Below, piece after piece: positions 1,147 through 57,567 of a stretch of DNA of 64,000 nt. The DNA is taken from positions 4,953,695-5,017,694 of the forward strand of contig OY755190.1 in the NCBI GenBank assembly GCA_963576735.1. Direction: 5' to 3'. The stretch comes from Bedellia somnulentella. Taxonomy: Eukaryota > Arthropoda > Insecta > Lepidoptera > Bedelliidae. The translations under genes and the position numbers were made by a program. The notes beneath the pieces were generated by a model, which did no database searches, had not been told where the DNA came from, and saw only the letters and a list, made by a program, of their open reading frames with translations. Positions within the stretch are counted from its first letter, which is position 1. Every line of letters begins with the position of its first letter.

Positions 1147-1182
1147 TATAGCATACTAACATTAAATAAAACTTATTCGCAG

Positions 1183-2555
1183 GATGGGATTACGACACCG
1201 TCTTGCACTACTTTAAGAAGTCTGAAAATATCCAAATACCCGACCTGGACCAAGATACGAAATATCATTCAACGTCCGGCGAGATGAATCTGCAGCATCC
1301 TAATTGGCGGACACCTTTGTCTGATGCGTTCTTGGAAGCAGGCTTAGAGACGGGGGGAAGGCTAGTGGACTACAACGGAGAGAAACAAACGGGATACTCA
1401 ATCATTCAGTTCACCCTGAAGAACGGTACCAGAATGAGCGCCAGCAGAGCGTTCCTACATCCTATCAAACAACGCAAGAATCTTCACATCTCCAAATATT
1501 CTATGGTCACAAAAATATTAATCGATCCAATAACCAAACACGCTTATGGAGTTCAGTTTTATAAAAACGGTAAAAAATACAAAATATTGGCACGCAAAGA
1601 AATAATTCTGTCAGCTGGAGCTATCAACTCACCACAAATTTTAATGGTCAGCGGAATTGGACCTCGCGAACATTTGATTGAGAAAAAAATAACACCTATA
1701 ATGGATCTTCCTGTTGGATCTAATTTGCAAGATCATTGGGCACTGGGAGGACTTACATTCGTCATCAATACTACTGATTCTATCAGATCTGAGAGAGTAG
1801 CCACTATAGATAATATTGTAGAGTACTACAGTCACCATACGGGTCCTCTATCTGCACCAAGTGGAACAGAAGCCTTGGCATTTATCGATACAAAAGACCC
1901 GACAAATGAAGACGGATATCCCGATTTAGAGTTACTTTTTGTTGGAGGTTCCTTAGTTTCACAGCCATTTTACAAAAAAGCTTTTTCTATAGACGATCGA
2001 GTATACGAAAAAGTCTATGGACCAATTAGAAATAGTGACACGTGGATGGTGTTCCCGATGTTATTGTTACCTGAATCGAAGGGTCGGATAATGCTGAGAG
2101 ATAAGAACCCGTTTAGCAAACCATTGATATATCCGAATTACTTTCAGGACGGTGGCCACGATCAGAAAGTGATACTCCACGGTATAAGAAAAGTAATTGA
2201 GTTGTCAAAGACGAAAGCGTTTCAAAAGTACGGAAGCAAATTACACGACATACCATTACCGAATTGCGCTCACCATGAGTTCAACAGTGACGAATACTGG
2301 TATTGCGCCATGAGAACTATCACCAATACGATCTACCATCATTGTTGTACCTGCAAAATGGGTCCAAAGAATGATACAGAAGCAGTAGTTGATTCAAGAT
2401 TGAATGTGCATGGTGTTATAGGACTGCGGGTGGTGGATGCGAGTATAATGCCTCACGTGCCGGCCGCTCACACAAACGCTCCAACAATGATGATAGCTGA
2501 AAGAGCTGCGGACTTCATCAAAGAAGATTGGGGAATACCTATTAAAAAGCGATAA
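1183..2555 (+). CDS. GMC oxidoreductase (glucose dehydrogenase-like), 3' terminal exon, partial
   Basis: This is the last coding exon of an FAD-dependent glucose-methanol-choline oxidoreductase, a family that oxidises alcohols or sugars and is usually secreted in insects. The exon begins after a splice acceptor (TTATTCGCAG, AG at 1181-1182). Its first two bases complete a split Gly codon, followed by WDYDTVLHYFKKSE, which aligns with WDTVLEYYKKIES of the second GMC gene in the window. Visible signatures are GAINSPQILMVSGIG (GMC signature 2), YHHCCTCKMG with the probable catalytic His, and AHTNAP with the second active-site position. About 456 residues are encoded and the frame is open to TAA. 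The FAD-binding N-terminus and signal peptide are not in the window, so the upstream exons must lie left of position 1. The exact substrate cannot be told. Confidence in the family is very high. Confidence 0.95.
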
Positions 2556-2632: not shown

Positions 2633-3129
2633 AATTCGGTATGCAAAGTTTTACAAAAGTGGTGCTGAATAGGAAACCATTTCGAGATATTATGTTTCTA
2701 AAACATATTTTCTTGAAATTAAATCAAACAAAGCTAAGATGACCGTTATTTTAACAAAATACTGTAAGAGTATTTGACCTTCAACGACTTTACAAAGACA
2801 ATCGCTTTTGCAGTTTGTTAATAAAATATCGAAAATCATAGGTTTCTTTAGTATAATATTGTAATAATTTCATTTGAGATCACATATTCGTGAAATATTT
2901 TGCAATCAGCAAAATTTTTTTAAACATTTCGTTTTATTTGCATGTCGCTACGTGATATTTTCGATCGATGACGTCATTAAGTACAAAAGTTGAACAATCT
3001 TTAAAAAAAACATAACTTTGCAATAACTCATTTTAAATGAAAAATATTCAAATTGGTCTTTTATTTTCGTGTTTGCTATTCAATAAAAATATTTAATAAA
3101 TACCAAAAAAAAACTTTGCATACCGAATT
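2633..3129. mobile_element. MITE-like element with 20-bp terminal inverted repeats
   Basis: AATTCGGTATGCAAAGTTTT at 2633-2652 is perfectly inverted at 3110-3129. The roughly 455 bp between them are AT-rich and encode nothing visible. No clear target-site duplication was found, so the superfamily is not assigned. It lies 77 bp after the stop codon of the first GMC gene. The AATAAA motifs near 2820 and 3081 lie inside it and could serve as polyadenylation signals for that gene. Confidence 0.6.
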
Positions 3130-3760
3130 GTGATTCCGTTGGGAAAATATTGGATTAGTACTAAAACTAAAGTTTATAATTTAAATTATTGTCAGTTTTT
3201 ATTTAAATTAAACATTCACATATTTTTTTAAGGTATTGATGCTTAATGACATAATTATTTGTATTTTGAATAGCAGACGACGAATATCAGTTTTTTTTAA
3301 ATTTGTTAGTTGTCATGCTCTTTGAAATTTACTACCATTTCAGTTTTCAATGTAATCAACATAAATCCCAGTAGCCATATTTGTTTTTTAATCAACTGTT
3401 ATTTTGTGATACTCTAGGACCTGATTTTGTAATTGTGATCATTATCATAGTTTGTAATGAATATTTAAATTTATTAAGTTAATTTAATTTACCATAATTA
3501 AACGAATTATTTGTTACTATTAATTCAAACAGGTATTTTATTGTTAATTAATATTACATAATTTAAATATTTTTGTTCATGAAAACCTCATGTAACCTCA
3601 TTCTTTATTTATTAGTATAACATAATTTGTGTTTTATTTATTACTCGTGAATGTGATTTTTAGACAGATAACAGAGATAACATCAAAAGATACTCTTCCA
3701 TCTTCAAATACAACCAAGGCAGAAAATGTGAAGCTCTTTAGTAAAGAACAAAATGTGAGC
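3130..3760. other. AT-rich intergenic DNA
   Basis: No gene is seen here. A short string TTGTTCATGAAAACCTCAT near 3573-3591 recurs at 46171-46189 and, inverted, near 11579-11598. It is probably the end of an unidentified dispersed repeat. Confidence 0.4.
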
Positions 3761-3772
3761 AAGTTTAAGTTA

Positions 3773-4018
3773 CATACATACATATACTCACGGCTATAAA
3801 TCCCTAGAAGGGGTAGCCAGAGCTAAGGAATTAGTAATTCCTCAGCCACTTTTGAAAATTCCGTGGGAAAAAGATGGTGAACTAAAGGTTTTTGGTCATG
3901 GGTCTCCAACCGCATCGCCCAAAAATCCCTTAAGAAGCCCCAATACCGTTAGTGGCCTCTTACGTACACCCACCGGAAGAATCGGGGTAGTGTTATTCTA
4001 AGCCGACACTACACAGCA
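3773..4018 (-). mobile_element. SINE family B, full length with target duplication
   Basis: Read on the minus strand, the element starts GCTGTGTAGTGTCGGCTTAGAA and ends GCCGTGAGTATATGTATGTA. It is flanked by a 12-bp target duplication AAGTTTAAGTTA (3761-3772 and 4019-4030). This copy helps define the ends of the family. Confidence 0.9.
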
Positions 4019-8434: not shown

Positions 8435-8677
8435 ACATACATATACTCACAACTATAAAACCCTAGAAGGGGTAGCCAGAGCTAAGGAATTATAAATTCC
8501 TCAGCCACTTTTGGAAAATTGAGTGGGGAAAAGATGGTAAAATAAAGGTTGTTGGTGAGGGGGCTCCAACCGCATCGCCCAAAAATCCCTTAAAAACCCC
8601 CAATACCGTTAGTCGCCTCATACGTACATCCACTGGAAGAAATGGGGTAGTGCTATTCTAAGCCGACACTACACAGC
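8435..8677 (-). mobile_element. SINE family B, near full length
   Basis: The element runs from ACATACATATACTCAC to GCCGACACTACACAGC. The sequence GCATATTAT occurs at both sides (8426-8434 and 8687-8695), with about nine extra bases between the SINE 5' end and the right copy. Confidence 0.85.
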
Positions 8678-8693
8678 TATTACAGTGCATATT

Positions 8694-10202
8694 ATGCCAC
8701 TGATAAATCGATTTAATTCAATGTACTATCTTATCATAGTAGAACCAACAACCGTAAACCCTAATAATAGTAAAGTACCATTCTCTGCGAAACAAGTCGC
8801 GAATATTATTCGAACAATGACGCGTGGTAAATCTCCGGGTCACGATGGGCTGAGCATTGAACACCTGCAGCATGCCGGAGTCCACCTGCACCGAGTACTA
8901 GCCATGTTCTATACCCTATGCATGAGACATTCTTATCTACCTACTGCGCTCATGCAAACAATTGTCGATCCCATTATAAAAAACAGAACGGGGGACGTAA
9001 CTGATAAGAACAATTATCGTCCTATATCCTTGGCTACAGTCCTGGCGAAGGTGCTTGACGGACTTCTAGACTCCCTTCTTGATAAATATCTCCACCTCCA
9101 TGATGCACAGTTTGGGTTCCGCCGGGGTCTATCAACTGAGAGTGCTATACTGAGCCAGAAGCACACAGTACAATATTACACGCAGCGTAGGACGCCGGTG
9201 TATGCGTGTTTCCTAGACCTATCACGAGCGTTCGACACTGTGTCCTACGATGTGCTTTGGGACAAGCTGCGGGGGAGGGATGGGCCGGCGGAACTGTTAT
9301 GCATTTTCCAGTTTTGGTATGGAAATCAAGATAACCGGGTTAGGTGGGACAATAAAGTTTCTGAGTCTTCCAGGCTGGGGTGTGGAGTAAGACAAGGTGG
9401 ACTTACGTCCCCCAAACTGTTTAACCTGTATATAAATGACCTGATCGTTGGGCTCAGCAGCAGGCGCATCGGATTTCGCGTGGATGATGTTACTATAAAT
9501 AACATCAGTTACGCTGGCGATATGGTCTTGCTGACACCATCAGTCAGAGCTCTGAATGATCTGCTTCATATGTGTGAAGAGTACGCTCTGAAGCACGGTT
9601 TGGCGTATAATCATAAGAAGAGCGAGTACATGGTCTTTAGGGCTGTCGGTGGAAAGATTCCTGATCATGTTCCAACAATTAAATTAAATGGTGTTGAGCT
9701 TAAGCGAGTGTACCAATTTAAATATCTAGGACACTTTATTACCGACGACCTTAAGGACCATGCAGATATAGAGAGGGAACTTAGGGCGATGGCAGTCAGG
9801 TGTAATATGCTGGTACGCAGGTTTGCGCGTTGTAGTCAGTCTGTTAAAATAACACTGTTTAAATCTTACTGTCAAGTCTTCTACACGTGCAGCCTGTGGG
9901 CCAGCTTTACACAAAAGGCTGTCAACGCTCTACGCGTTCAGTACAATAATGGATTCAGAATGTCGTTGGGGCTGCCTCGATTCTGCAGCGCATCTGGCAT
10001 GTTTGCCGCGGCGCGCACTGATGACTTTTACGCGATAATGCGCAAAAAGGCAGCGTCATTGCTCTGCAGAGTTCGGGCTAGCTCTAACTCCATTCTGAAA
10101 ACCATCGCTGGAAGGTACGACTCGCCAATCTTTCGTCATCTCTCCAATGTATTGGTTAGGGGGAATGAGGGGCAAATTTATAGAAACTTATTTTATCATT
10201 AA
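8694..10202 (+). pseudogene. Non-LTR reverse transcriptase, 5'-truncated, active-site mutant
   Basis: This is the reverse transcriptase of a non-LTR retrotransposon. Recognisable motifs in order are RGKSPGHDGLSIEHL, NNYRPISLATVLAKVLD, AQFGFRRGLSTESAI, FLDLSRAFDTV (motif A, catalytic Asp), GCGVRQGGLTSPKLFN and YAGDMVLL (motif C). Motif C is normally YADD; one catalytic Asp is replaced by Gly, so the enzyme should be dead. The N-terminal endonuclease is absent. ATG 8694 is used only to bound the open frame; similarity to copy 2 begins around VEPTT (about 8739). The frame is otherwise open for about 500 codons, so the copy is fairly young despite the lesion. Confidence 0.88.
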
Positions 10203-14903: not shown

Positions 14904-14963
14904 GCTCTGACTAGACATTCTCTGGAAAATTTCAGAGATGCTATTGAACTCAGAAACGCAGAG

Positions 14964-16624
14964 ATGAATACAGTGATGTATAGCATGTGTCGAACTCGAA
15001 AAGAATTTAAATCTAAGCTTCGCTGGTGCCAGAACAATGAACAGCAAATAAAAATGGACATACTCGCTAGTAAATGTCAGTGTAAAGATTTTTCTGGTTT
15101 TTGGAAGGCTACAGCTAAATTAAATCCGAAACCACCGGTATCCGATACGGTTGGTCAGTCTTCGGGCTCGGAAAACATTGCGAATATGTTCTGTGAGCTT
15201 TTTAAGATGGAACCCACGGCTTTAAATGTCTCTAGTGACGAGGTGAGGACCACCGTGGCCGGTGAGAGATACGTGAGATTTACGGCGTCAGACGTCAAGC
15301 GAGCAATTAAGCGTATAAAGCGTGGTAAATCTCCCGGCCACGATGGTCTCAGCATAGAGCACCTTCGTTTTGCTGGCCCACACATATCTAGATTACTGTG
15401 TATGTTGTTTAATTTATGTATAGGGCATTCCTATTTACCTGACGAACTTATGAAGACTGTAGTTGTGCCAATTGTTAAGAACAGAAATGGTAGTGTGGTG
15501 GACAGTAGTAACTATAGACCTATTTCGCTTGCTACTGTGATTGCTAAGGTGCTAGACAGTCTGCTTGACGAGCAGCTAGCCGCTAAATCGTCAATCAGTG
15601 ATTCCCAATTCGGATTTAGGGAAGGGGTATCCACTGAGAGTGCTATTCTGTGCGTCAAACAGACTGTCAGGTACTACACCGATAGGAAGACACCAGTATA
15701 CGGATGCTTCCTGGATCTCAGTAAGGCATTTGATGTTGTAAATTATGATGTACTGTGGAGCAAACTGTCAAGGGAGACCAATCTTGATCCGGAACATATG
15801 GCTCTATTCAGGTTCTGGTACCAGCACCAAAAAAATTATGTGAGGTGGGGTGACAGTGTGAGCCCTGAGTACCGCCTAAAATGCGGCGTCCGGCAGGGCG
15901 GATTGTCTTCTCCGAGGCTTTTTAATATATTTGTAAATGCGCTGATTGAGGAGCTCAGTGGAGCCAAAGTCGGGTGCTCGGTTGATGGAACTTCCATGAA
16001 TAACATCAGCTATGCTGATGATATGGCGCTACTGAGCCCTTCAGTGAGCGCATTGCAAAAGCTACTTAATATTTGTGAGAGTTATGCTGTTAAATGTGGG
16101 CTTAAGTATAACGGTAGCAAAAGTGTTTATCTGGTATTTAGTGCGGGAAACAAACTGCCAAAATCGGTTCCCCCGATAAAGCTATGTGGTAGGGAGCTCA
16201 TAAGGGTGGATAGTTTTAAGTATTTGGGACACTTCCTTGACGTAAAGCTCTCAGACAATCTTGATATTGAAAGAGAGCGTAGGGCGCTGTCTGTACGATG
16301 CAATATGGTGGCCCGCAGGTTTGCTAGGTGTAGCACAGAGGTAAAACTGACCCTGTTCCGAGCTTTCTGTCAGTCTTTCTACACCTGCAGCCTGTGGCTC
16401 TCATATAAGCGGAGTGCGTACAGCGCACTACGCGTTCAATACAACGATGCTCTACGAATAATGTTGCGAAAACCCCGGCACTGCAGTGCGTCGCTGATGT
16501 TCGCGGAGGCCCATGTTGATGACTTTTTTGCCATCATGCGGAAACGCGCGGCCTCCACTAGGGATAGACTACTTGCGTCCAACAATAGCCTTCTGCGAAC
16601 ATTTGCGACGAAATGGGACACGCC
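14964..16624 (+). CDS. Non-LTR reverse transcriptase, interrupted by the hAT insertion
   Basis: This is the reverse transcriptase of the split LINE. Motifs in order are RGKSPGHDGLSIEHL, SNYRPISLATVIAKVLD, SQFGFREGVSTESAI, FLDLSKAFDVV, KCGVRQGGLSSPRLFN and an intact YADDMALL catalytic motif. ATG 14964 bounds the frame, but in-frame LINE-like residues continue upstream to 14904 (FRDAIELRNAE). The last native codon before the insertion encodes Thr of KWDT, and the Pro codon spans the junction. Beyond the hAT the frame resumes exactly in phase at 30297-30299 and ends at TAG 30345-30347 after about 15 more residues. The extra residues read through into the hAT end (to 16688) are artefactual. Without the insertion this frame would be open throughout. 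Confidence 0.88.
16617..16624. repeat. hAT target-site duplication, left copy
   Basis: GACACGCC at 16617-16624 is repeated exactly at 30291-30298. Eight bases is the duplication length typical of hAT elements. Confidence 0.95.
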
Positions 16625-16639
16625 TAGTGATGTGCCGTT

Positions 16640-17108
16640 GGGAAAATACTCGTTCCCAGTAGTTTCCCATTTAGTAACTTACCAGTAAGTTTCCAATATT
16701 ACCAGTAACATTCCCAAACACTGGGAATATTCAAATGTTGTTGGTTGCAATTTTGTTTTGCAGTATTTTTTGTACTAGGCTTAACAATATTGATCAAAAC
16801 AAGACACAGTATTAAAATAAACAATTTAAAGTACAGAAAATGTTTGTAGGTACGTACAAATATAAATAATATTTGCATATATATTAATATGTTGAAACAA
16901 ATTTAAATTTCGCTTTTTACTGACTAATTGACATCATAAAATATGCCTCAGGTACAATTTATGTTTTTTTGGTTGATTCTTGTGTACAAAAGAGCACTCT
17001 GTCCTATCGTTCTATCTCTGTTGCTCTTACAAGCGGTGGTTGCCTGCGTGCGCGCCTCGTAAAACCGTTAGTTTCCCTTGAGATACCGTGGGTGAACAAC
17101 GTGTAAAA
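16640..17108 (+). promoter_or_regulatory. hAT 5' subterminal region and leader
   Basis: Repeated motifs GGGAAAATACTCG, TTCCCAGTAGTTTCCC, ACCAGTAAGTTTCC, ACCAGTAACATTCCC and CACTGGGAATATTC cluster within 120 bp of the left end in both orientations. This is typical of hAT transposase binding arrays. The transposase promoter is presumably in this stretch, but no TATA box is clear. Confidence 0.6.
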
Positions 17109-19481
17109 ATGAAACCGAAAAGTAAAGTGTACGACTATTTTATATCAAAATCTACTGTCAATGATAAAACCACTTTCACGTGTTCATTTTGTAAAACTGT
17201 TTATTATTTCAAAAATGCAACGAAATTTGTGACACATTTAAAGAAATGTGCTTTGTGCCCCAGTGACGTCAAAGACTTATTTAAAAAAATTAATGATAAA
17301 ACCGAGGCGCAGCCATCGGAACCACGACCGGGAACCTCAACATCTTTAGTGGCTTTATCGAGTAGGATTTCAAACGAATTTGATGTGGTAAGTCTCTCTT
17401 TATAATATTTGCAAACATCGCTTGACTAAGTAAACGGATATTGTAACATTTCATTTAATGATGTGCAATTGTGCACATTGAATATTCCATTACTTTTTTA
17501 TTTAATATTAGATACGCAAATTAAGTGCATAAAAATAGCTCAAACTTAACTCTAAAGTCAAACTGGTTGCCGCCACTGTCCAACGCTGTCCGCCATTTTG
17601 AATAACGGAAGCGTCTTTTAAAATAATCATCAGCGCACTCTATATTATGAAGGAATCAATCCAACGCAGTCCACACTGAATGCACACAATTTGGTTGTAT
17701 TTTAATTGTCTCTGGCTAAAAACAGTTTTAATTTTAATAATGTATTGATTAACTTATTGCAAATAATCTGCAATTTAAACATATTACTACAATGAGGAGT
17801 TATTTAAAAAAATACAACTGTCAAATATTTGTATGAAAAAAGTCGAAAGGTACCATTTGAAATTTAGCAGACTAGGCTTTGACAGATTGATTTTTTAAAT
17901 AACTCCTCATAACGGAATAATGTATAACGTAGCTGCATAGTATCTTACTTTATGATAAATTTGTCTAATTATAGCCTTTAATCCTTATGTAGTACAAGAA
18001 TTACCTACATACCTAGACATTTTAGTATTTGTCGTTGAAATTTTAGTTTGATCTTTTTTCTCTTTTAGATGAATGTACATCGGGCCATCGCAAAAGCTAT
18101 CTACGTAAGCGGTGCTCCACTGTGTCTGTTCGAGCATCCACTTTGGAAAGAGGCACTATATATGCTACAACCTACTTACAGTCCTCCATCACGTAAAGTT
18201 TTGGCTACGTCTTTGTTGGACAAGGAATACACTGAAATGAAAGATAATAATGTAACGGACAAACTGAAACAAGCAAGTGTGTTACATTTGGCAATTGACG
18301 GGTGGTCGAATCTGAGAAATGAATCAATTTTGAACGTTATCTTATATGCACCAAAGCCATATTTTTATAAATTTATCGAGACTAAAAATATTAAACATAC
18401 AGCTGAATACCTAACTGACGAGATTTCTAAAATTTTGGAAGAATTTGGAACAGCAAAGTTTCTGGCAATCATATCAGATAATGCATCCAACATGGTGAAA
18501 TGTGGCAGATTATTAAAAGCAAAATATGAAAAGACAATGTGGATCGGATGTTTGGCACACTCTTTACATTTATTGATTGGAGATATGTTAAAGATACCAA
18601 AGATAAGAAACTTATTTGCACACATTGTAGATATAATAAAGTGTATTACCCAATCACATATTGTAAATGCGGAATATCGAAAGATTGCAGAAGACAAATG
18701 CATAAATATTTCTCTTCAGTTACTCGTCAAGACTAGGTGGGGAAGTTATATGCAATGTCTTAAAAGCTTCTTGAAATCAAAAGTTATATTGCAAATTTTA
18801 GTAATCCATGAAGATATACAACGTCTATCAAAATATAAAGTAAAACTTTTGAATGAAACCGTATGGTACGAATTAGAAAAACTTGAAAAAATAATAAAAC
18901 TTATTGTTGGTTGGATTACCAAACTAGAAGGTGATTATTGTGTTATTCATAAAGTACACAAGGCAGTAAGCAAAATTGAAGCACTACTTCATAACTCAGA
19001 TTCAGAGGCCTTTTTGGGTGACGACAAAGAAAGCTTGACGACGAAATTCAAAAATAGAAAAGCGAATGCCCTTAAACCGATACATTTTGCGGCAGCAATC
19101 TTAGATCCCAATAATCAAGGTGTGTTTTTAAAAGATGAGGAAAACATCGCAGGAATGGAAGTAATTATGAATATAGATGAGTCATATTCTAGTACGATTG
19201 TGGAAGAACTGTCCAATTATAAATGTCGGCGAAGCATATGGGAAAAAGAATTTGTGTGGAAGATGGCTAAAACAGTTGAACCCATGTTATGGTGGCAGTC
19301 ACTGTTCCCGAAATCATCTTTGGCACAAGCAGCTTTGAAGATTTTATCACTTCCGGCTACTTCAGCATCAGTAGAAAGATCATTTTCTACTTTCTCGAAT
19401 ATGCATACAAAAAAGAGAAACAGATTAACAACAAACCGAGCGGGAAAAATTTGTTTTGTATCCCACATAATTGTCAAATAA
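17109..19481 (+). CDS. hAT transposase with BED zinc finger (two exons)
   Basis: This is the transposase of the hAT element, 563 residues from exons 17109-17387 and 18069-19481. The donor GTGGTAAGT and acceptor TCTCTTTTAG join codons in phase 0 across a 681-bp intron. ATG 17109 is the first Met in frame and starts MKPKSKVYDYF. A BED-type finger is seen as C25-x2-C28-x14-H43-x3-C47. The RNase H-like core shows AIDGWS (Asp170), SDNASNM (Asp230), CLAHSLHLL (254-262) and TRWGS (315-319). The C-terminal dimerisation region is LPATSASVERSFSTFSN, with Glu529 as candidate third acidic residue. A likely one-base frameshift near 19463-19470 cuts off an acidic tail (next feature). Otherwise the enzyme looks complete. 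Confidence 0.92.
17792..17910. mobile_element. 119-bp MITE-like element in the transposase intron
   Basis: ATGAGGAGTTATTTAAAAAA at 17792-17811 is perfectly inverted at 17891-17910. The 79 bp between encode nothing. It lies inside the intron, so it does not disturb the transposase. No clear target duplication is visible. Confidence 0.7.
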
Positions 19482-19590
19482 TGCTGTGATTGACGTAGAT
19501 TCATTCAACTCAGAACCCGAAATTGAAATTTCGGAGGTTGAAGATAACGAAATGGACCAAAACCCCCTAAATAACGACGAATCTGACTGA
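19468..19590 (+). pseudogene. Frameshifted acidic C-terminal tail of the hAT transposase
   Basis: Directly after the transposase stop, another frame reads LSNNAVIDVDSFNSEPEIEI and then a further run rich in Asp and Glu, ending at TGA 19588-19590. Acidic tails after the dimerisation domain are common in hAT transposases. A single-base indel around 19463-19470 would join the two frames. Confidence 0.6.
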
Positions 19591-19906
19591 TTTGGAAGAT
19601 ATATTTCCCACTTGATTTATCCCTCTAATTATCTGTGATTATGACTGAATTATTGTGATTTAAAATAGTTAATTACTCCAATATTTACGTGCTAAAGAAT
19701 TATTATTGTTATATTTATATAACAGGTTGATTGTTGAATAAATAATATGTATTTTTCGACTTTTTATTTTTACTCAGTAATTAACATAACATACTGACTG
19801 GGAAAATACCCGGTAACTTACTGGGAATATTCCGGGGGCACACAGGGGAACATTGGGAATATACTGTTTAGAATAAGAATATTAATATAATTTGATTAAA
19901 ATGTGA
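19591..19906 (+). other. hAT 3' untranslated and subterminal DNA up to the foldback insertion
   Basis: AATAAATAATATG near 19737 could serve as a polyadenylation signal. From about 19796 the region holds ACTGGGAAAATACCCGG, TTACTGGGAATATTCC and ATTGGGAATATACTG. These are the same GGGAA motifs as at the left end, and they resume after the foldback at 30196-30280. Confidence 0.65.
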
Positions 19907-19915
19907 CGTAAAACC

Positions 19916-20130
19916 ACCTGTGTGAAGTTGGCAGCCAAAACTGGCAGCCATTATAATACGACCAAATTAAGAAGTAAAATACTTTTTGGTTCCATTTACC
20001 AGAATAACATGTAAATCCAAAGTTTTCAGTAGTTATTATGTTATATGTATCGATACTCATCCGGACATACATCCATATTCATCTGTAGACAGTGCCAAAG
20101 CCTGCAGATAAAATGAAATTAAGCATGGGA
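19916..20130 (+). repeat. Unique outer segment of the foldback left arm
   Basis: About 215 bp, nearly identical to the reverse complement of 29919-30131. It contains a short direct repeat GGCAGCCA-AAACT-GGCAGCCA just inside the terminus. The hAT subterminal sequence lies immediately outside the 9-bp duplication. Confidence 0.88.
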
Positions 20131-23100
20131 GCCGCTCCAGAAAAATCCTCACCTCTCCTAAACCAAGACCCGTAACACTTTGTGGTTACATTCATTGTAA
20201 AGCCTATTACATAAGCTATCAAATAATGGTATAACAGTATCCCGCTTTGCCGTCAGAGGAAGGAATATTCGACGGAGAAGATGACAGCGTATACAAGTAT
20301 AAGAAATGTAACGGCCGCTCCAGAAAAATCCTCACCTCTCCTAAACCAAGACCCGTAACATATTGTAGTTACATTCATTGTAAAGCTTATTACATAAGCT
20401 ATCAAATGATGGTATAACAGTGATTACTCGTAGAGGTGGAAATGCGCCAACGTCCTCTGTCTGGGGGGCTCCGTGTCCGGGAATAGTGAAACTCGCTGTG
20501 TTCACTCTTCGAAATCTATATTAATTGTGTTCATTTGAATAATTGGGCGTTACAAGTGCCCTCTGTATAACAATAGCGGAGCTTCTAGAATACATAGCAA
20601 TCGACCGTTAAAACGGTACTTTATTAATTCAAATGTTTCTGGAAGAAACAGAAAGTTCTAATGTTCCTAACGGTTGTTTTACATTGATCGAGACTATTCT
20701 TTATTACGTAATTTACTAGCGACATCTGTTGAGCAATAGTAAATCTAACTTAACATATCAATATCAATATGCCTCTGATGGCTTTAATGTACATACTTTT
20801 ACACCAGATGTCGCCACCTATAAAATACAGTCCTTTTAATTATATTCTTTACCAACCCTTTGGGAAAGGCGCAGCACTATGTTATGATAGTGCGGCTTAA
20901 CAAACAGTATCCCGCTTTGCCGTCAGAGTAAGGAATATTCGACGGAGAAGATGACAGCGTATACAAGTATAAGAAATGTAACGGCCGCTCCAGAAAAATC
21001 CTCACTTCTCCTAAACCAAGACCCGTAACACTTTGTAGTTATATTAATTGTAAAGCTTATTACATAGGCTATCAAATGATGGTATAACAGTATCCCGCTT
21101 TGCCGTCAGAGTAAGGAATATTCGACGGAGAAGATGACAGCGTATACAAGTATAAAAAATATAACGACCGCTCCAGAAAAATCGTCACTTCTCCTAAACC
21201 AAGATCCGTAACACTTTGTGGTTACATTCATTTTAAAGCCTATTACATAAGCTATCAAATAATGGTATAACAGTATCCCGCTTTGCCGTCAGAGTAAGGA
21301 ATATTCAACGGAGAAGATGACAGCGTATACAATTATAAGAAATAAAACGGCCGCTCCAGAAATATCGTCACCTCTCCTAAACCAAATCCCGTAACACTTT
21401 GTGGTTACATTCATTGTAAAGCTTATTACATAAGCTATCAAATGATGGTATAACAGTATCCCGCTTTGCCGTCAGAGTAAAGAATATTTGACGGAGAAAA
21501 TGACAGCGTATACAATTGTAAAAAATATGGCGGCCGCTCCAGAAAAATCCTCACCTCTCCTAAACCATGACCCGTAACACTTTGTAGTTACATTCATTGT
21601 AAAGCTTATTACATAGGCTATCAAATAATGGTATAACAGTATCCCGCTTTGCCGTCAAAGTAAGGAATATTCGACGGAGAAGATGACAGCGTATACAATT
21701 ATAAGAAATAAAACGGCTGCTCCAGAAAAATCGTCACCTCTCCTAAACCAAGACCCGTAACACTTTGTAGTTACATTCATTGTAAAGCTTATTACATAAG
21801 CTATCAAATGATGGTATAAGAGTATCCCGCTTTGCCGTCAGAGTAAGGAATATTCGACGGAGAAGATGACAGCGTATACAATTATAAGAAATAAAACGGC
21901 CGCTCCAGAAAAATCGTCACCTCTCCTAAACCAAGACCCGTAACACTTTGTGGTTACATTCATTGTAAAGCTTATTACATAAGCTATAAAAAAATGGTAT
22001 AACAGTATCCCGCTTTGCCGTCAGAGTAAAGAATATTTGACGAAGAAAATGACAGCGTATACAACTGTAAGAAATATGGCGGCCGCTCTAGAAAAATCCT
22101 CACCTCTCCTAAACCATGACCCATAACACTTTGTAGTTACATTCATTGTAAAGCTTATTACATAGGCTATCAAATGATGGTATAACAGTATCCCGCTTTG
22201 CCGTCAGAGTAAGGAATATTCGACGGAGAAGATGACAGCGTATACAACTGTAAGAAACATGGCGGCCGCTCCAGAAAAATCCTCACCTCTCCTAAACCAA
22301 GACCCGTAACACTTTGTGGTTACATTCATTGTAAAGCCTATTACATAAGCTATCAAATAATGGTATAACAGTATCCCGCTTTGCCGTCAGAGGAAGGAAT
22401 ATTCGACGGAGAAGATGACAGCGTATACAAGTATAAGAAATGTAACGGCCGCTCCAGAAAAATCCTCACCTCTCCTAAACCAAGACCCGTAACACTTTGT
22501 AGTTACATTCATTGTAAAGCTTATTACATAAGCTATCAAATGATGGTATAACAGTATCCCGCTTTGCCGTCAGAGTAAGGAATATTCGACGGAGAAGATG
22601 ACAGCGTATACAAGTATAAGAAATGTAACGGCCGCTCCAGAAAAATCCTCACTTCTCCTAAACCAAGACCCGTAACACTTTGTAGTTATATTAATTGTTA
22701 AAGCTTATTACATAGGCTATCAAATGATGGTATAACAGTATCCCGCTTTGCCGTCAGAGTAAGGAATATTCGACGGAGAAGATGACAGCGTATACAACTG
22801 TAAGAAACATGGCGGCCGCTCCAGAAAAATCGTCACTTCTCCTAAACCAAGATCCGTAACACGTTGTGGTTACATTCATTTTAAAGCCTATTACATAAGC
22901 TATCAAATAATGGTATAACAGTATCCCGCTTTGCCGTCAGAGTAAGGAATATTCGACGGAGAAGATGACAGCGTATACAATTATAAGAAATAAAACGGCC
23001 GCTCCAGAAATATCGTCACCTCTCCTAAACCAAGTCCCGTAACACTTTGTGGTTACATTCATTGTAAAGCTTATTACATAAGCTATCAAATGATGGTATA

Positions 23101-25304
23101 ACAGTATCCCGCTTTGCCGTCAGAGTAAGGAATATTCGACGGAGAAGATGACAGCGTATACAATTATAAGAAATAAAACGGCTGCTCCAGAAAAATCGTC
23201 ACCTCTCCTAAACCAAGACCCGTAACACTTTGTAGTTACATTCATTGTAAAGCTTATTACATAAGCTATCAAATGATGGTATAACAGTATCCCGCTTTGC
23301 CGTCAGAGTAAGGAATATTCGACGGAGAAGATGACAGCGTATACAATTATAAGAAATAAAACGGCCGCTCCAGAAAAATCGTCACCTCTCCTAAACCAAG
23401 TCCCGTAACACTTTGTGGTTACATTCATTGTAAAGCTTATTACATAAGCTATCAAATGATGGTATAACAGTATCCCTCTTTGCCGTCAGAGTAAAGAATA
23501 TTTGACGAAGAAAATGACAGCGTATACAACTGTAAGAAATATGGCGGCCGCTCTAGAAAAATCCTCACCTCTCCTAAACCATGACCCATAACACTTTGTA
23601 GTTACATTCATTGTAAAGCTTATTACATAGGCTATCAAATGATGGTATAACAGTATCCCGCTTTGCCGTCAGAGTAAGGAATATTCGACGGAGAAGATGA
23701 CAGCGTATACAACTGTAAGAAACATGGCGGCCGCTCCAGAAAAATCCTCACCTCTCCTAAACCAAGACCCGTAACACTTTGTGATTACATTCATTGTTAA
23801 GCCTATTACATAAGCTATCAAATAATGGTATAACAGTATCCCGCTTTGCCGTCAGAGTAAGGAATATTCGACGGAGAAGATGACAGCGTATACAAGTATA
23901 AGAAATGTAACGGCCGCTCCAGAAAAATCCTCACCTCTCCTAAACCAAGACCCGTAACACTTTGTGATTACATTCATTGTTAAGCCTATTACATAAGCTA
24001 TCAAATAATGGTATAACAGTATCCCGCTTTGCCGTCAGAGTAAGGAATATTCGACGGAGAAGATGACAGCGTATACAACTGTAAGAAACGTGACGGCCGC
24101 TCCAGAAAAATCGTCACCTCTCCTAAACCAAGACCCGTAACACTTTGTGGTTACATTCATTGTAAAGCTTATTACATAAGCTATCAAATGATGGTATAAC
24201 AGTATCCCGCTTTGCCGTCAGAGTAAAGAATATTTGACGAAGAAAATGACAGCGTATACAACTGTAAGAAATATGGCGGCCGCTCTAGAAAAATCCTCAC
24301 CTCTCCTAAACCATGACCCATAACACTTTGTAGTTACATTCATTGTAAAGCTTATTACATAGGCTATCAAATGATGGTATAACAGTATCCCGCTTTGCCG
24401 TCAGAGTAAGGAATATTCGACGGAGAAGATGACAGCGTATACAACTGTAAGAAACATGGCGGCCGCTCCAGAAAAATCCTCACCTCTCCTAAACCAAGAC
24501 CCGTAACACTTTGTGATTACATTCATTGTTAAGCCTATTACATAAGCTATCAAATAATGGTATAACAGTATCCCGCTTTGCCGTCAGAGTAAGGAATATT
24601 CGACGGAGAAGATGACAGCGTATACAAGTATAAGAAATGTAACGGCCGCTCCAGAAAAATCCTCACCTCTCCTAAACCAAGACCCGTAACACTTTGTGAT
24701 TACATTCATTGTTAAGCCTATTACATAAGCTATCAAATAATGGTATAACAGTATCCCGCTTTGCCGTCAGAGTAAGGAATATTCGACGGAGAAGATGACA
24801 GCGTATACAACTGTAAGAAACGTGACGGCCGCTCCAGAAAAATCGTCACCTCTCCTAAACCAAGACCCGTAACACTTTGTGGTTACATTCATTGTAAAGC
24901 TTATTACATAAGCTATCAAATGATGGTATAACAGTATCCCGCTTTGCCGTCAGAGTAAGGAATATTCGACGGAGAAGATGACAGCGTATACAACTGTAAG
25001 AAACATGGCGGCCGCTCCAGAAAAATCGTCACCTCTCCTAAACCAAGACCCGTAACACTTTGTGGTTACATTCATTGTAAAGCCTATTACATAAGCTATC
25101 AAATGATGGTATAACAGTATCCCGCTTTGCCGTCAGAGTAAGGAATATTCGACGGAGAAGATGACAGCGTATACAACTGTAAGAAACATGGCGGCCGCTC
25201 CAGAAAAATCGTCACCTCTCCTAAACCAAGACCCGTAACACTTTGTGGTTACATTCATTGTAAAGTCTATTACATAAGCTATCAAATGATGGTATAACAG
25301 TATC
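20131..25304 (+). repeat. Left arm: about 25.6 tandem units of 183 bp
   Basis: Each unit starts GGCCGCTCCAGAAAAATC and contains CTCCTAAACCAAGACCCGTAA, GGTATAACAGTATCCCGC, TTTGCCGTCAGAGTAAGG and GACAGCGTATACAA. The spacing of the AACAGTATCCC landmark is exactly 183 bp over many units (20903, 21086, 21269, 21452, 21635). A solo LTR interrupts one unit at 20421-20902. A higher-order period of 732 bp (4 units) is visible: the GTGATTACATTCATTG variants at 23781 and 23964 recur at 24513 and 24696. Confidence 0.95.
20421..20902 (-). mobile_element. Solo LTR inserted in the foldback left arm
   Basis: The 482-bp insert interrupts a 183-bp unit and is flanked by a 5-bp duplication AACAG (20416-20420 and 20903-20907). 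Its ends are TG...CA on either strand. The minus strand is the more likely sense: it starts TGTTAAGCCGCACTATC, holds two AATAAAG signals and ends GAGTAATCA. No coding region and no second LTR remain, as expected after LTR-LTR recombination. The 5-bp duplication fits several LTR superfamilies. Confidence 0.75.
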
Positions 25305-28300
25305 TTGGTTTAGGAGAAGTGAGGATTTTTCTGGAGCGGCCGCTATATTTCTTACAGTTGTATACGCTGTCATCTTCTCCGTCGGATATTCCTTACTCTG
25401 ACGCGGGATACTGTTATACCATCATTTGATAGCTTATGTAATAGGCTTAACAATGAATGTAACCACAAAGTGTTACGGGTCTTAGTTTAGGAGAGGTGAC
25501 GATATTTTCTGGAGCGGCCGCGCCATGTTTTCTTACAGTTGTATACGCTGTCATCTTCTCCGTCGAATATTCCTTACTCTGACGGCAAAGCGGGATACTG
25601 TTATACCATCATTTGATAGCTTATGTAATAAGCTTTTACAATGAATATAACTACAAAGTGTTACGGGTCTTGGTTTAGGAGAGGTGAGGATTTTTCTGGA
25701 GCGGCCGCCATATTTTTTACAATTGTATACGCTGTCATTTTCTCCGTCAAATATTCTTTACTCTGACGGCAAAACGGGATACTGTTTATACCATCATTTG
25801 ATAGCTTATGTAATAAGCTTTACAATGAATGTAACCACAAAGTGTTACGGGACTTGGTTTAGGAGAGGTGACGATTTTTCTGGAGCGGCCGTTTTATTTC
25901 TTATGCTTGTATACGCTGTCATCTTCTCCGTCGAATATTCCTTACTCTGACGGCAAAACAGGATACTGTTATACCATCATTTGATAGCCTATGTAATAAG
26001 CTTTACAATGAATATAACCACAAAGTGTTACGGGTCTTGGTTTAGGAGAAGTGAGGATTTTTCTGGAGCGGCCGTTACATTTCTTATACTTGTATACGCT
26101 GTCATCTTCTCCGTCGAATATTCCTTACTCTGACGGCAAAGCGGGATATTGTTATTCCATCATTTGATAGCCTATGTAATAAGCTTTACAATGAATGTAA
26201 CTACAAAGTGTTACGGGTCATGGTTTAGGAGAGGTGAGGATTTTTCTGGAGCAGCCGCCATATTTTTTTACAGTTGTATACGCTGTCATCTTCTCCGTCA
26301 AATATTCTTTACTCTGACGGCAATGCGGGATACTGTTATACCATCATTTGATAGCTTATGTAATAAGCTTTACAATGAATGTAACCACAAAGTGTTACGG
26401 GTCTTGGTTTAGGAGAGGTGACGATTTTTTCTGGAGCGGCCGTTTTATTTCTTATAATTGTATACGCTGTCATCTCTCCGTCGAATATTCCTTACTCTGA
26501 CGGCAAAGCGGGATACTGTTTATACCATCATTTGATAGCTTATGTAATAAGCTTTAAAATGAATGTAACCACAAAGTGGTTACGGGTCTTGGTTTAGGAG
26601 AAGTGACGATTTTTCTGGAGCGGTCGTTATATTTCTTATACTTGTATACGCTGTCATCTTCTCCGTCGAATATTCCTTACTCTGACGGCAAAGCGGGATA
26701 CTGTTATACCATCATTTGATAGCTTATGTAATAAGCTTTACAATGAATGTAACCACAAAGTGTTACGGGTCTTGGTTTAGGAGAAGTGACGATTTTTCTG
26801 GAGCGGTCGTTATATTTCTTATACTTGTATACGCTGTCATCTTCTCCGTCGAATATTCCTTACTCTGACGGCAAAGCGGGATACTGTTATACCATCATTT
26901 GATAGCCTATGTAATAAGCTTCACAATGAATGTAACGACAAAGTGTTACGGGTCTTGGTTTAGGAGAGGTGACGATTTTTCTGGAGCGGCCGTTTTATTT
27001 CTTATAATTGTATACGCTGTCATCTTCTCCGTCGAATATCCCTTACTCTGACGGCAATGCGGGATACTGTTATACCATCATTTGATAGCTTATGTAGTAA
27101 CCTTCACAATGAATGTAACCACAAAGTGTTACGGGTCTTGGTTTAGGAGAAGTGAGGATTTTTCTGGAGCGGCCGCTATATTTCTTACAGTTGTATACGC
27201 TGTCATCTTCTCTGTCAAATATTCCTTACTCTGACGGCAAAACGGGATACTGTTATACCATTATTTGATAGCTTATGTAATAGGCTTTACAATGAATGTA
27301 ATTACAAAGTGTTACGGGTCTTGGTTTAGGAGAGGTGAGGATTTTTCTGGAGCGACCGCCATATTTCTTACAGTTGTATACGCTGTCATCTTCTCCGTCG
27401 AATATTCCTTACTCTGACGGCAAAGCGGGATACTGTTATACCATCATTTGATAGCTTATGTAATAGGCTTAACAATGAATGTAACCACAAAGTGTTACGG
27501 GTCTTGGTTTAGGATAGGTGACGATTTTTCTGGAGCAGCCGTTTTATTTCTTATACTTGTATAAGCTGTCATTTTCTCCGTCGAATATTCCTTACTTTGA
27601 CGGCAAAGCGGGATACTGTTATACCATCATTTGATAGCTTATGTAGTAACCTTCACAATTAATGTAACCACAAAGTGTTACGGGTCTTGGTTTAGGAGAA
27701 GTGACGATTTTTCTGGAGCGGCCGCCATGTTTCTTACAGTTGTATACGCTGTCATCTTCTCCGTCGAATATTCCTTACTCTGACGGCAAAGCGGGATACT
27801 GTTATACCATCATTTGATAGCCTATGTAATAAGCTTTACAATGAATGTAACTACAAAGTGTTACGGGTCATGGTTTAGGAGAGGTGAGGATTTTTCTGGA
27901 GCGGCCGCCATATTTCTTACAGTTGTATACGCTGTCATTTTCTTCGTCAAATATTCTTTACTCTGACGGCAAAGCGGGATACTGTTATACCATCATTTGA
28001 TAGCTTATGTAGTAACCTTCACAATTAATGTAACCACAAAGTGTTACGGGTCTTGGTTTAGGAGAAGTGACGATTTTTCTGGAGCGGCCGCCATGTTTCT
28101 TATAATTGTATACGCTGTCATCTTCTCCGTCGAATATCCCTTACTCTGACGGCAATGCGGGATACTGTTATACCATCATTTGATAGCTTATGTAGTAACC
28201 TTCACAATGAATGTAACCACAAAGTGTTACGGGTCTTGGTTTAGGAGAAGTGAGGATTTTTCTGGAGCGGCCGCTATATTTCTTACAGTTGTATACGCTG

Positions 28301-29918
28301 TCATCTTCTCTGTCAAATATTCCTTACTCTGACGGCAAAACGGGATACTGTTATACCATTATTTGATAGCTTATGTAATAGGCTTTACAATGAATGTAAT
28401 TACAAAGTGTTACGGGTCTTGGTTTAGGAGAGGTGAGGATTTTTCTGGAGCGGCCGCCATATTTCTTACAGTTGTATACGCTGTCATCTTCTCCGTCGAA
28501 TATTCCTTACTCTGACGGCAAAGCGGGATACTGTTATACCATCATTTGATAGCTTATGTAATAGGCTTAACAATGAATGTAACCACAAAGTGTTACGGGT
28601 CTTGGTTTAGGAGAGGTGACGATTTTTCTGGAGCAGCCGTTTTATTTCTTATACTTGTATAAGCTGTCATTTTCTCCGTCGAATATTCCTTACTTTGACG
28701 GCAAAGCGGGATACTGTTATACCATCATTTGATAGCTTATGTAGTAACCTTCACAATTAATGTAACCACAAAGTGTTACGGGTCTTGGTTTAGGAGAAGT
28801 GACGATTTTTCTGGAGCGGCCGCCATGTTTCTTACAGTTGTATACGCTGTCATCTTCTCCGTCGAATATTCCTTACTCTGACGGCAAAGCGGGATACTGT
28901 TATACCATCATTTGATAGCTAATGTAGTTACCTTCACAATGAATGTAACCACAAAGTGTTACGGGTCTTGGTTTAGGAGAAGTGAGGATTTTTCTGGAGC
29001 GGCCGCTATATTTCTTACAGTTGTATACGCTGTCATCTTCTCTGTCAAATATTCCTTACTCTGACGGCAAAGCGGGATACTGTTATACCATTATTTGATA
29101 GCTTATGTAATAGGCTTTACAATGAATTTAACCACAAAGTGTTACGGGTCTTGGTTTAGGAGAAGTGACGATTTTTCTGGAGCGGCCGTTATATTTCTTA
29201 TACTTGTATAAGCTGTCATTTTCTCCGTCGAATATTCCTTACTTTGACGGCAAAGCGGGATACTGTTATACCATCATTTGATAGCTTATGTAGTAACCTT
29301 CACAATTAATGTAACCACAAAGTGTTACGGGTCTTGGTTTAGGAGAGGTGACGATTTTTCTGGAGCGGCCGCCATGTTTCTTACAGTTGTATACGCTGTC
29401 ATCTTCTCCGTCGAATATTCCTTACTCTGACGGCAAATCGGGATACTGTTATACCATCATTTGATAGCTAATGTAGTAACCTTCACAATGAATGTAAGCA
29501 CAAAGTGTTACGGGTCTTGGTTTAGGAGAAGTGAGGATTTTTCTGGAGCGGCCGCTATATTTCTTACAGTTGTATACGCTGTCATCTTCTCCGTCAAATA
29601 TTCCTTACTCTGACGGCAAAGCGGGATACTGTTATACCATTATTTGATAGCTTATGTAATAGGCTTTACAATGAATGTAATCACAAAGTGTTACGGGTCT
29701 TGGTTTAGGAGAGGTGAGGATTTTTCTGGAGCGGCCGCCATATTTCTTACAGTTGTATACGCTGTCATCTTCTCCGTCGAATATTCCTTACTCTGACGGC
29801 AAAACGGGATACTGTTATACCATCATTTGATAGCTTATGTAATAAGCTTTACAATGAATGTAACCACAAAGTGTTACGGGTCTTGGTTTAGGAGAGGTGA
29901 GGATTTTTCTGGAGCGGC
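25305..29918 (-). repeat. Right arm: about 25.2 inverted tandem units of 183 bp
   Basis: This is the same 183-bp unit in inverted orientation (for example CTTGGTTTAGGAGAAGTGAG, TTTTTCTGGAGCGGCCGC). A higher-order period of 1,098 bp (6 units) is visible: GTAGTAACCTTCACAAT variants at 27094 and 27643 recur at 28192 and 28741. Open frames of 87-88 codons in this stretch are shadows that arise because 183 is divisible by three. Confidence 0.95.
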
Positions 29919-30131
29919 TCCCATGCTTAATTTCATTTTATCGGCAGGCTTTGGCACTGTCTACAGATGAATATGGATGTATGTCCAGATGAGTATCGAT
30001 ACATAACATTATAACTAGTGAAAACTTTGGATTTACATGTTATTCTGGTAAATGGAACCAAAAATTATTTTACTTCTTAATTTGGTCGTATTATAATGGC
30101 TGCCAGTTTTGGCTGCCAACTTCACACAGGT
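29919..30131 (-). repeat. Unique outer segment of the foldback right arm
   Basis: Inverted copy of 19916-20130 with only a few substitutions (for example ATGTTATGTATCG against ATGTTATATGTATCG). It ends GGCTGCCAACTTCACACAGGT, followed by the 9-bp duplication. Confidence 0.88.
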
Positions 30132-30290
30132 CGTAAAACCTCACGGTCGAAAAGTTATTATAATTAAAGTCATGATAAAACAGTTTATTCTTCAATGTTC
30201 CCCTATATTACCACTTATTGGGAATGTTACTGGGAACGCTACCGGGAAAATACTCGCTATGAGTAAGATACCGGGAACGGCACATTACTA
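30132..30290 (+). other. hAT 3' subterminal region and right terminal repeat
   Basis: After the duplication CGTAAAACC the hAT resumes. TATTGGGAATGTTACTGGGAACGCTACCGGGAAAATACTCGC and ATACCGGGAACGG repeat the GGGAA motif. The end CGGCACATTACTA mirrors the left end. Confidence 0.8.
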
Positions 30291-30472
30291 GACACGCCAC
30301 TGTTCGGGCAGTGGTCCATTACTTTGTACAGTAGAAATAAAAAATAGGTTTTAAGTCTACTAACGATATTTTTAGTTCTTTAGTTTTGTATTTTAGTTTT
30401 TTCTTGTATTACTAACCCTTATGGACCTTGTAGTCTGCAATAAATGTTTTTATTATTATTATTTATTATTAT

Positions 30473-57020: not shown

Positions 57021-57567
57021 ATCACTTCTTAACTAAAACATCTTAACTAAACGTATTTTAATATAATTGTTGGTCTTCTATAAACAAATTATAAACACAA
57101 TTAATGCAGGTAGATCACGCTCCGTAGTTAAGATAAATATAATGATAATAATATGGTAGCATAAGCATATGTTATTGTGGTTAAAGGAGAAAAATACTGT
57201 ACACCACTTATTTATTTTAATTTAAACTACTTATTGTATACTGGCTGAGGTTAGTTTCACAAATAAATTTTAAGGAACTACAAAAATATTAACAGGTGTT
57301 AATAATAGTTTTTTTTTTTTCGAACAACTATATTCACATATTGTAAGAAAGGCTTATCATATTCATTTAGTCAACAACATTCTAGCTATAGGAAGAAGTT
57401 AAAGTCAAAATCATACACGTCTGTAGCGGTTCACGATAGCACAATTTTTTAATCGTCATGCAGTGAATAAAACAACCCATAGTTCACCCATATCCCATAT
57501 TCACAGTCCATGCCAATTTCATAAAACCTTTTATGTAATACTAAAGTCTATATATTTTTTGTTTCAG
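57021..57567 (+). other. Upstream intron of the second GMC gene (3' part)
   Basis: The stretch ends with a pyrimidine-rich tract and acceptor (TATATATTTTTTGTTTCAG, AG at 57566-57567). No promoter is evident close to the ATG, which favours a distant first exon. Confidence 0.55.

What the first reader, a model, noticed from the sequence alone, without database searches (positions are those of the whole stretch)
19907..30140. A 10.2 kb foldback element whose arms are arrays of a 183-bp repeat, with a 9-bp target duplication
The ends are perfectly bounded: inverted ACCTGTGTGAAGTTGGCAGCC termini flanked by CGTAAAACC. Each arm is about 215 bp of unique sequence plus about 25 tandem 183-bp units, arranged as a giant palindrome. 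Drosophila Foldback elements share this architecture and the 9-bp duplication, but this sequence family may be undescribed. It shows that a satellite-like array can be carried as a transposable unit.
Basis: partly seen in the sequence, partly recalled or inferred. Interest (0 to 1): 0.88.

Follow-up and report, generated by a model that had tools for sequence, protein, structure and literature searches.

The report
Foldback transposon with satellite-repeat arms
A 10-kb jumping DNA element, made almost entirely of two mirror-image arrays of a 183-base repeat, has moved to many places in this genome with a clean 9-base footprint; it looks like a new, recently active family of a known but little-studied kind.

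Summary
Confirmed. The element is window 19916-30131 (10,216 bp), flanked by CGTAAAACC on both sides. Each arm is about 215 bp of unique sequence, a 102-bp partial unit and 24-25 full units of a 183-bp repeat. It lies inside a hAT transposon, itself inside a LINE-like frame. The genome holds many copies: 151 candidates, 40 scored, all 40 matching. In 8 of 8 copies with both ends seen (7 of 13 fetched stretches plus the window) the duplication is exactly 9 bp. Eight insertions, the window's included, share an identical 215-bp end, so movement was recent. Arms are often unequal, and the centre occurs in both orientations relative to the two distinguishable ends, as expected if the arms recombine. 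One copy has a broken, PHD-like transposase beside its array; an open-frame relative is also followed by a 183-bp array, though a second relative is not where read. This fits Rehavkus/MULE best, with weak domain scores. Tetris and Rehavkus-1_TC already show satellite-bearing inverted termini: a new family of a known kind.

The parts
19907..19915 (+). left copy of the 9-bp target-site duplication CGTAAAACC
   Evidence: exact match to 30132-30140; 8 of 8 copies with both ends seen have a 9-bp duplication
19916..30131 (.). whole foldback element, 10,216 bp, apparently non-coding
   Evidence: termini and repeats; no stop-to-stop frame of 120 aa or more inside
19916..20130 (+). left end, 215-bp unique flanking domain (haplotype alpha)
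   Evidence: 100% identical at L001-L008, the window's own copy included, with eight different flanks; diagnostic columns
20131..20232 (+). 102-bp partial repeat unit (unit positions 82-183)
   Evidence: the same partial unit follows the end in 30 of 30 fetched loci (one base shorter in L025)
20233..20415 (+). first full 183-bp unit of the left arm
20421..20902 (.). 482-bp insertion with TG..CA ends and 5-bp duplication AACAG; resembles a solo LTR
   Evidence: of the 30 fetched loci only L001, the window's own copy, matches it
20903..25295 (+). 24 full 183-bp units, left arm
25296..25302 (.). 7 bp at the centre junction of the palindrome (GGTATAACAGTATC|TTGGTTTAGGA), no loop
25303..29816 (-). 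partial unit and 24 full 183-bp units, right arm
29817..29918 (-). 102-bp partial unit, right arm
29919..30131 (-). right end, 213-bp flanking domain (haplotype beta)
30132..30140 (+). right copy of the 9-bp duplication
16625..30290 (+). host hAT element (3,441 bp without the foldback and one duplication copy), 15-bp ends that differ at one base, 8-bp duplication GACACGCC at 16617 and 30291
   Evidence: ORF 18069-19481 matches DUF659 and Dimer_Tnp_hAT

Best explanation
This is a non-autonomous cut-and-paste DNA transposon of foldback type, best placed with the Rehavkus/Mutator-like (MULE) group. SHOWN: fixed termini, 9-bp target duplications at unrelated sites, recent multiplication, arms that are arrays of a 183-bp unit with variable unit number, a centre found in both orientations, and a decayed transposase-like gene beside the array of one copy. 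INFERRED: a DDE transposase made in trans (with a PHD-like finger and perhaps a C48 protease domain) binds the 215-bp ends, perhaps also the repeat units, cuts the element out and inserts it with a 9-bp stagger. Within an insertion the arms gain and lose blocks of units by unequal exchange or slippage. Recombination between the inverted arms flips the interior and, if unequal, shifts the centre and makes the arms unequal.
For: Ends and 9-bp duplication in the window. 151 candidates in the genome, 40 scored, 40 matching. 30 of 30 fetched loci (at most 26 sites) have the exact terminus, followed by the array. Exact 9-bp duplications in 8 of 8 copies with both ends: CGTAAAACC, GAGTATAAC, TAATTTGAT, GCCGTTTGG, GTATCAAAA, CTACTCTGC, CAAACCTCT, ATGATGGAG. 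Identical 215-bp end at L001-L008. End haplotypes alpha and beta together in 5 copies. Centre junction in one orientation relative to alpha in 2 of these 5 (window, C24) and in the other in 3 (C5, C16, C25p). Multi-unit block duplications. Unit matches per arm, partial ones counted, such as 9 and 74 (C17) or 6 and 22 (C5). Transposase pieces beside the array in copy C28b, collinear with a 1140-aa relative. PHD-like matches; C48 and PHD above their cut-offs in homologue P0001. The 1140-aa frame is followed by an array of 183-bp period whose unit shares 40 of 60 positions with the window unit (best of 60 shuffles 34).
Against: The gene lies beside these ends in only one copy, C28b, and no second end was found in its 20-kb stretch, which holds 200 N. 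Pfam MULE: 1 of 7 proteins or pieces, E 0.072, 14.0 bits against a cut-off of 27.6. PHD in the genome's own proteins is below the cut-off, and in the C28b piece C1 and FYVE-type fingers score as well (20.2, 20.4 against 20.3 bits). C48 was not reported for either of the genome's own frames, one of which was cut short. A second relative (C25) has no 183-bp array in the 520 bp read downstream. The unit similarity between families is little better on the stated strand than on the other (60 positions: 40 against 34; 46 positions: 32 against 31; local score 30 against 28, best of 500 shuffles 28). Stretches C8, C24 and C25p each hold 200 N, so among stretches without N the flip rests on the window against C5 and C16. 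Innermost alpha-arm units do not prefer alpha arms (0.46, 13 units). The AlphaFold model of P0002 was useless (mean pLDDT 29.9).
Confidence: 0.85

Rival explanations
1. A foldback-like element moved by another superfamily, such as a P-superfamily transposase as in Galileo, or hAT; the transposase-like gene in C28b is then an unrelated neighbour or a nested insertion.
For: Galileo shows that foldback form does not fix the superfamily (PMC3573991, passages). Only one copy links gene and ends, and the foldback lies inside a hAT element. The MULE match is weak.
Against: The duplication is 9 bp in 8 of 8; the host hAT here left 8 bp, and P elements leave 7-8 bp (recalled). The C28b gene ends about 210 bp from the array, and a relative of it is followed by an array of the same period.
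Confidence: 0.1
2. An ordinary satellite array that became inverted by segmental duplication or palindrome formation; the terminal match and 9-bp repeat are incidental.
For: Unit divergence and block duplications look like ordinary satellite dynamics. L015-L017 share one flank and L022-L023 another, so some loci are duplicates of one site.
Against: The exact terminus abuts many different flanks (at most 26 sites among 30 loci) and 9-bp duplications occur at 8 of 8 sites; the host hAT continues on both sides.
Confidence: 0.02
3. Assembly artefact: a read folded back on itself gives a false palindrome.
For: Large palindromes are known artefact forms (recalled); four of the 13 stretches hold 200 N.
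Against: The two ends of the window copy differ at several bases and a 2-bp indel, unit order differs between arms, one arm alone carries the 482-bp insertion, and a duplication flanks both ends.
Confidence: 0.01

Closest known systems
Rehavkus elements (Repbase; Rehavkus-1_TC of Tribolium; group row in PMC6446971 Table 1)
   Same: 9-bp duplication; PHD finger in the transposase; minisatellite at the C-terminal side (passages). Rehavkus-1_TC is 9.5 kb with a 164-bp satellite, mostly five and eight monomers, in its inverted termini (passages).
   Different: Here the window copy has no long frame and is array almost throughout, with 24-25 full units per arm and about 74 unit matches in one arm of another copy. 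No Repbase sequence could be compared, and PHD is only weakly scored here.
Tetris (Drosophila virilis)
   Same: Foldback with a flanking domain plus about 220-bp tandem units in the inverted termini; 8-9 bp (rearranged copies 9-10 bp) duplications; no conserved ORF; units amplified into satellite-like arrays (passages).
   Different: Tetris has a middle domain and few units in the allelic pair described (three and four), and its transposase was not found (passages). Here there is no middle domain, the arms are far longer, and there is a candidate transposase in the same genome.
Drosophila FB/NOF
   Same: Long inverted repeats built of tandem repeats; 9-bp duplication (recalled).
   Different: No FB or NOF sequence was compared; unit length and sequence differ as far as recalled.
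Galileo (P superfamily)
   Same: Long TIRs; in one subfamily an internal tandem repeat of about 210 bp varies independently between the two TIRs (passages).
   Different: P-type transposase; shorter duplication (recalled); two or three repeats in the passages seen.

Membership tests
Rehavkus (as in PMC6446971 Table 1) | 9-bp target duplication | tested here: met
   8 of 8 copies with both ends seen
Rehavkus (as in PMC6446971 Table 1) | TIR of 26-400 bp | tested here: met
   215/213-bp unique inverted ends, if the arrays are counted apart
Rehavkus (as in PMC6446971 Table 1) | minisatellite at the C-terminal side of the gene | tested here: met
   array about 210 bp past the gene end in C28b and about 460 bp past it in the C6 relative; not seen in 520 bp read beyond the C25 relative: 2 of 3
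Rehavkus (as in PMC6446971 Table 1) | PHD finger in the transposase | tested here: inconclusive
   PF00628: 20.3 bits (C28b), 21.4 (C6), 17.9 (C25), all under the cut-off of 24, and C1/FYVE_2 score like PHD in C28b; 24.9 in P0001, above it; none reported for P0002
Rehavkus (as in PMC6446971 Table 1) | sequence homology to a named Rehavkus transposase | not testable with these tools
   Repbase not held
MULE superfamily | MULE/DDE catalytic domain | tested here: inconclusive
   PF10551 E 0.072, 14.0 bits against 27.6, in 1 of 7 proteins or pieces scanned (none); motif blocks seen by eye
Foldback-type element (form) | two long inverted arms of tandem repeats with precise ends and duplication | tested here: met
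Drosophila FB/NOF family | sequence homology to FB or NOF | not tested
   no FB or NOF sequence at hand

The most novel reading that the evidence does not exclude
The 183-bp unit is a selected, functional module rather than passive satellite. Its period is the same, 183 bp, in two families whose transposases have diverged to 34-42% identity in the aligned pieces. Both units keep a 17-base inverted repeat (AGCTTAT..ATAAGCT in one, AGCCTA..TAGGCT in the other) 18 bases before CAAAGTGTTAC. Such a unit could be a repeated transposase-binding site spaced by one nucleosome, with the arm array acting as an antenna that the element carries and expands.
Probability: 0.2. Interest if true: 0.7.

Novelty: new member of a known kind. 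Interest (0 to 1): 0.5.

Why it matters
The family is young, has intact ends in many places, and varies from 5.3 to 15.9 kb among the eight copies with both ends (three of them in stretches with an assembly gap). That makes it a good natural series for watching how a transposon's inverted ends grow into satellite arrays and how inverted arms recombine. It adds a case with a candidate transposase family in the same genome to a group (Rehavkus) of which, says PMC6446971, very few elements are known. It also warns that satellite catalogues may count transposon arms.

Tried and rejected
Assembly artefact and plain satellite: rejected. First idea that CGTAAAACC at 17058 marked a second element 17067-19906: rejected, because the hAT ends lie at 16625 and 30290 with duplication GACACGCC; my first guess of the hAT end (CAGTGGCGTG) was wrong too. 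Single-ended copies C25m and C32: their arrays stop within a few bases of the same unit position, and beyond that the two share only short dispersed matches; unexplained. Similarity between the 215-bp end and the unit: none beyond shuffles (best 12.4; 200 shuffles, maximum 15.4). Similarity around the centre did not discriminate, because units are about 93% alike anyway. Structure prediction of P0002: discarded. Rfam at gathering threshold and ARAGORN on the window: nothing. PDB and NCBIfam with C28b pieces: nothing. IMG/VR scan for the terminus: none, with the tool's note that records near this genome may be left out. Protein database: no homologue for the largest C28b piece, two for the C6 relative. 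Rows dropped: only unit matches of at least 165 of 183 positions were kept; no row was dropped as partial. The shuffles are plain letter shuffles (a function is misnamed), and the 46- and 60-position windows were chosen after I had seen the alignment.

Not in print: I found no paper describing this family in the searches and 115 of one open-access library; no Repbase or Dfam was held, so 'undescribed' is not shown.
Full report
OBSERVATION. The element proper is 19916-30131, 10,216 bp, with 21-bp perfect inverted termini and CGTAAAACC at 19907-19915 and 30132-30140. The outer domains (215 bp left, 213 bp right) match apart from a few substitutions and a 2-bp indel. Then follow, in both arms, the same 102-bp partial unit and full 183-bp units: 25 full units left, 24 right plus a partial one at the centre. 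TRF gives 24.0 copies at 20903-25304 and 25.2 at 25303-29918. The two arrays meet head to head without a loop, with 7 bp between the unit matches. No stop-to-stop frame of 120 aa or more lies inside. A 482-bp insertion with TG..CA ends and a 5-bp duplication interrupts the left arm at 20421-20902; it looks like a solo LTR (inference).

SETTING. The element lies in a hAT transposon, 16625-30290, with 15-bp ends TAGTGATGTGCCGTT / TAGTAATGTGCCGTT and 8-bp duplication GACACGCC. Its gene 18069-19481 matches DUF659 and Dimer_Tnp_hAT. The hAT lies in a reading frame that resembles the LINE frame at 8613-10202 (which matches RVT_1; the interrupted frame itself, 14904-16688, was not scanned); past the hAT that frame stays open for 15 residues. 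So the nest is LINE-like frame, hAT, foldback, LTR-like piece, with duplications of 8, 9 and 5 bp for the inner three. Frames matching GMC oxidoreductase lie near both ends of the window.

OTHER COPIES. The outer 234 bp has 151 candidates in the genome; 40 were scored and all 40 matched. In 30 of 30 fetched loci the 21-base terminus is intact and is followed by the partial unit and at least some units. The 30 loci stand for at most 26 sites, since L015-L017 share one flank, L022-L023 another, and L019-L020 are the two ends of one copy. In 13 longer stretches (20 regions) both ends were found in 7. With the window that makes 8 copies with both ends, 5.3 to 15.9 kb, 8 of 8 with exact 9-bp duplications of different sequence. 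Of the other 6 stretches, 3 (C6, C29, C69) run off the fetched DNA within the array; 3 (C25m, C32, C28b) leave the array within about 1.2 kb of the end and show no opposite end in 20 kb.

AGE AND SUBFAMILIES. L001 to L008 (L001 is the window's own) have the same 215 bp letter for letter at eight flanks, so these insertions are recent. Diagnostic bases split the ends into haplotypes. Five copies (window, C5, C16, C24, C25p) have alpha at one end and beta at the other (with one further change in the beta ends of C5 and C25p and in the alpha end of C16); C28a and C8 have the same haplotype at both ends, and C17's two ends differ at one column. This looks like descent of a few two-ended lineages that jumped repeatedly.

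ARM DYNAMICS. Unit divergence averages 6.4% within an arm (8,785 pairs), 7.0% between the arms of one copy (3,284) and 7.6% between copies (114,184). Clustering near-identical units shows blocks of several units duplicated within arms, for example 08 34 33 58 twice in the window's right arm, and blocks shared between copies, for example 06 60 .. 59 08 34 33 in the window and C24. The best match of a unit in another alpha/beta copy lies in the same kind of arm for 0.73 of 175 units, against a shuffle mean of 0.52 and maximum of 0.64 in 200 shuffles; the 13 innermost alpha units do not share this (0.46). Arms can be very unequal: unit matches, partial ones counted, 9 and 74 in C17, 48 and 18 in C8, 6 and 22 in C5, 24 and 7 in C16; C28a is even, 20 and 20. 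The stretches of C8, C24, C25p and C28b each hold 200 N. The asymmetric centre junction, 25 bases, is identical in five copies but stands in opposite orientation relative to alpha in C5, C16 and C25p as against the window and C24, where it occurs twice. Exchange between inverted arms explains both the flip and, if unequal, the shifted centre. That is inference; conversion of the ends is an alternative, also an exchange between arms. C28a, C6 and C29 have other junctions.

TRANSPOSASE. In copy C28b the unit matches end at L040:1375, and at L040:1586 ends a broken gene on the other strand. Three separate pieces (L040:3727-4119, 2832-3248, 1586-2704) are collinear with a 1140-aa open frame at C6, at 41, 42 and 34% identity. 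The last piece has a PHD-like finger, for which C1 and FYVE-type models score as well. The genome has 30 matches to this piece at E <= 0.001, of 56 candidates, all scored, among them open frames of 1140 and 1068 aa. The 1140-aa relative shows PHD (21.4 bits, cut-off 24) and a weak MULE match (E 0.072); no C48 match was reported for it. A homologue in the protein database (P0001) has C48 protease and PHD domains above their cut-offs, and another (P0002) has no Pfam match. By eye the alignment has DATGG, TDFSFA, CCAH and SNAVVENYFG blocks, the order I recall for the MULE D-D-(CxxH)-E core (recalled, not tested).

THE SAME PERIOD IN A RELATIVE. About 460 bp past the stop of the 1140-aa frame begins an array of 183-bp period (6.3 copies to the end of the DNA read). 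Its unit is mostly different but holds a 60-position stretch with 40 identities to the window unit, on the strand that gives both arrays the same orientation to their gene; the other strand reaches 34, and so does the best of 60 shuffles. Over 46 positions the strands differ little (32 and 31; best shuffle 27). Gapped local scores are 30 and 28 against a best of 28 in 500 shuffles. In that stretch both units have a 17-base inverted repeat, then 18 bases, then CAAAGTGTTAC (read by eye); the inverted repeat itself lifts the score of the wrong strand. A second relative (C25) shows no such array in the 520 bp that I could still read. So the conserved period rests on one relative; having set out the near-equal strand scores, I lowered the probability of the functional-unit reading from 0.25 to 0.2.

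COMPARISON. PMC6446971 (passages) gives Rehavkus as 9-bp duplication, TIR 26-400 bp, one ORF, PHD finger, minisatellite at the C-terminal side. This fits, with PHD and MULE homology only weakly shown here. [quoted passage not shown] PMC4079207 (passages) describes Tetris, a foldback whose 220-bp units became a satellite. PMC3573991 (passages) shows independent TIR growth by tandem repeats in Galileo, a P-superfamily element. PMC13359780 (passages) surveys arthropod MULEs but uses Rehavkus as an outgroup. Hence the kind is known. New here, as far as these searches go, are the family, the array length with no middle domain, the flip of the centre between copies, and the link to an open-frame transposase family with the same repeat period.

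VERDICT. Real, clean, recent and mobile; a new family of a known kind; interest 0.5.

Noticed in passing
window 16617-30298: A hAT element with 8-bp duplication GACACGCC sits in a LINE-like frame and is itself split by the foldback element: a clean nest.
   Followed up: yes
window 20421-20902: 482-bp insertion with TG..CA ends and 5-bp duplication AACAG inside the left arm, like a solo LTR.
   Followed up: partly
window 3771-4018 and many other places: A dispersed repeat of about 250 bp occurs, whole or in part, more than a dozen times in the window.
   Followed up: no
L036/L037 (C25), L038/L039 (C32): Two insertions carry one end and about four units, and both arrays stop at nearly the same unit position (around 75-79) before different interiors.
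   Followed up: partly
L046 (C69:22051842-22061841): The element's end occurs twice, 3,270 bp apart, with the same flank: apparently a tandem duplication that includes flanking DNA.
   Followed up: no
L040 4361-8047: A 1228-aa frame that looks like a LINE protein (by eye) lies just upstream of the broken transposase-like gene in copy C28b.
   Followed up: no
L056 (C25:12693880-12694399): Downstream of a second transposase relative lies a dispersed repeat also present in the window near 34.2 and 63.4 kb, not a 183-bp array.
   Followed up: partly
window 1170-2555 and 57427-59433: Frames matching GMC oxidoreductase domains near both ends of the window.
   Followed up: no
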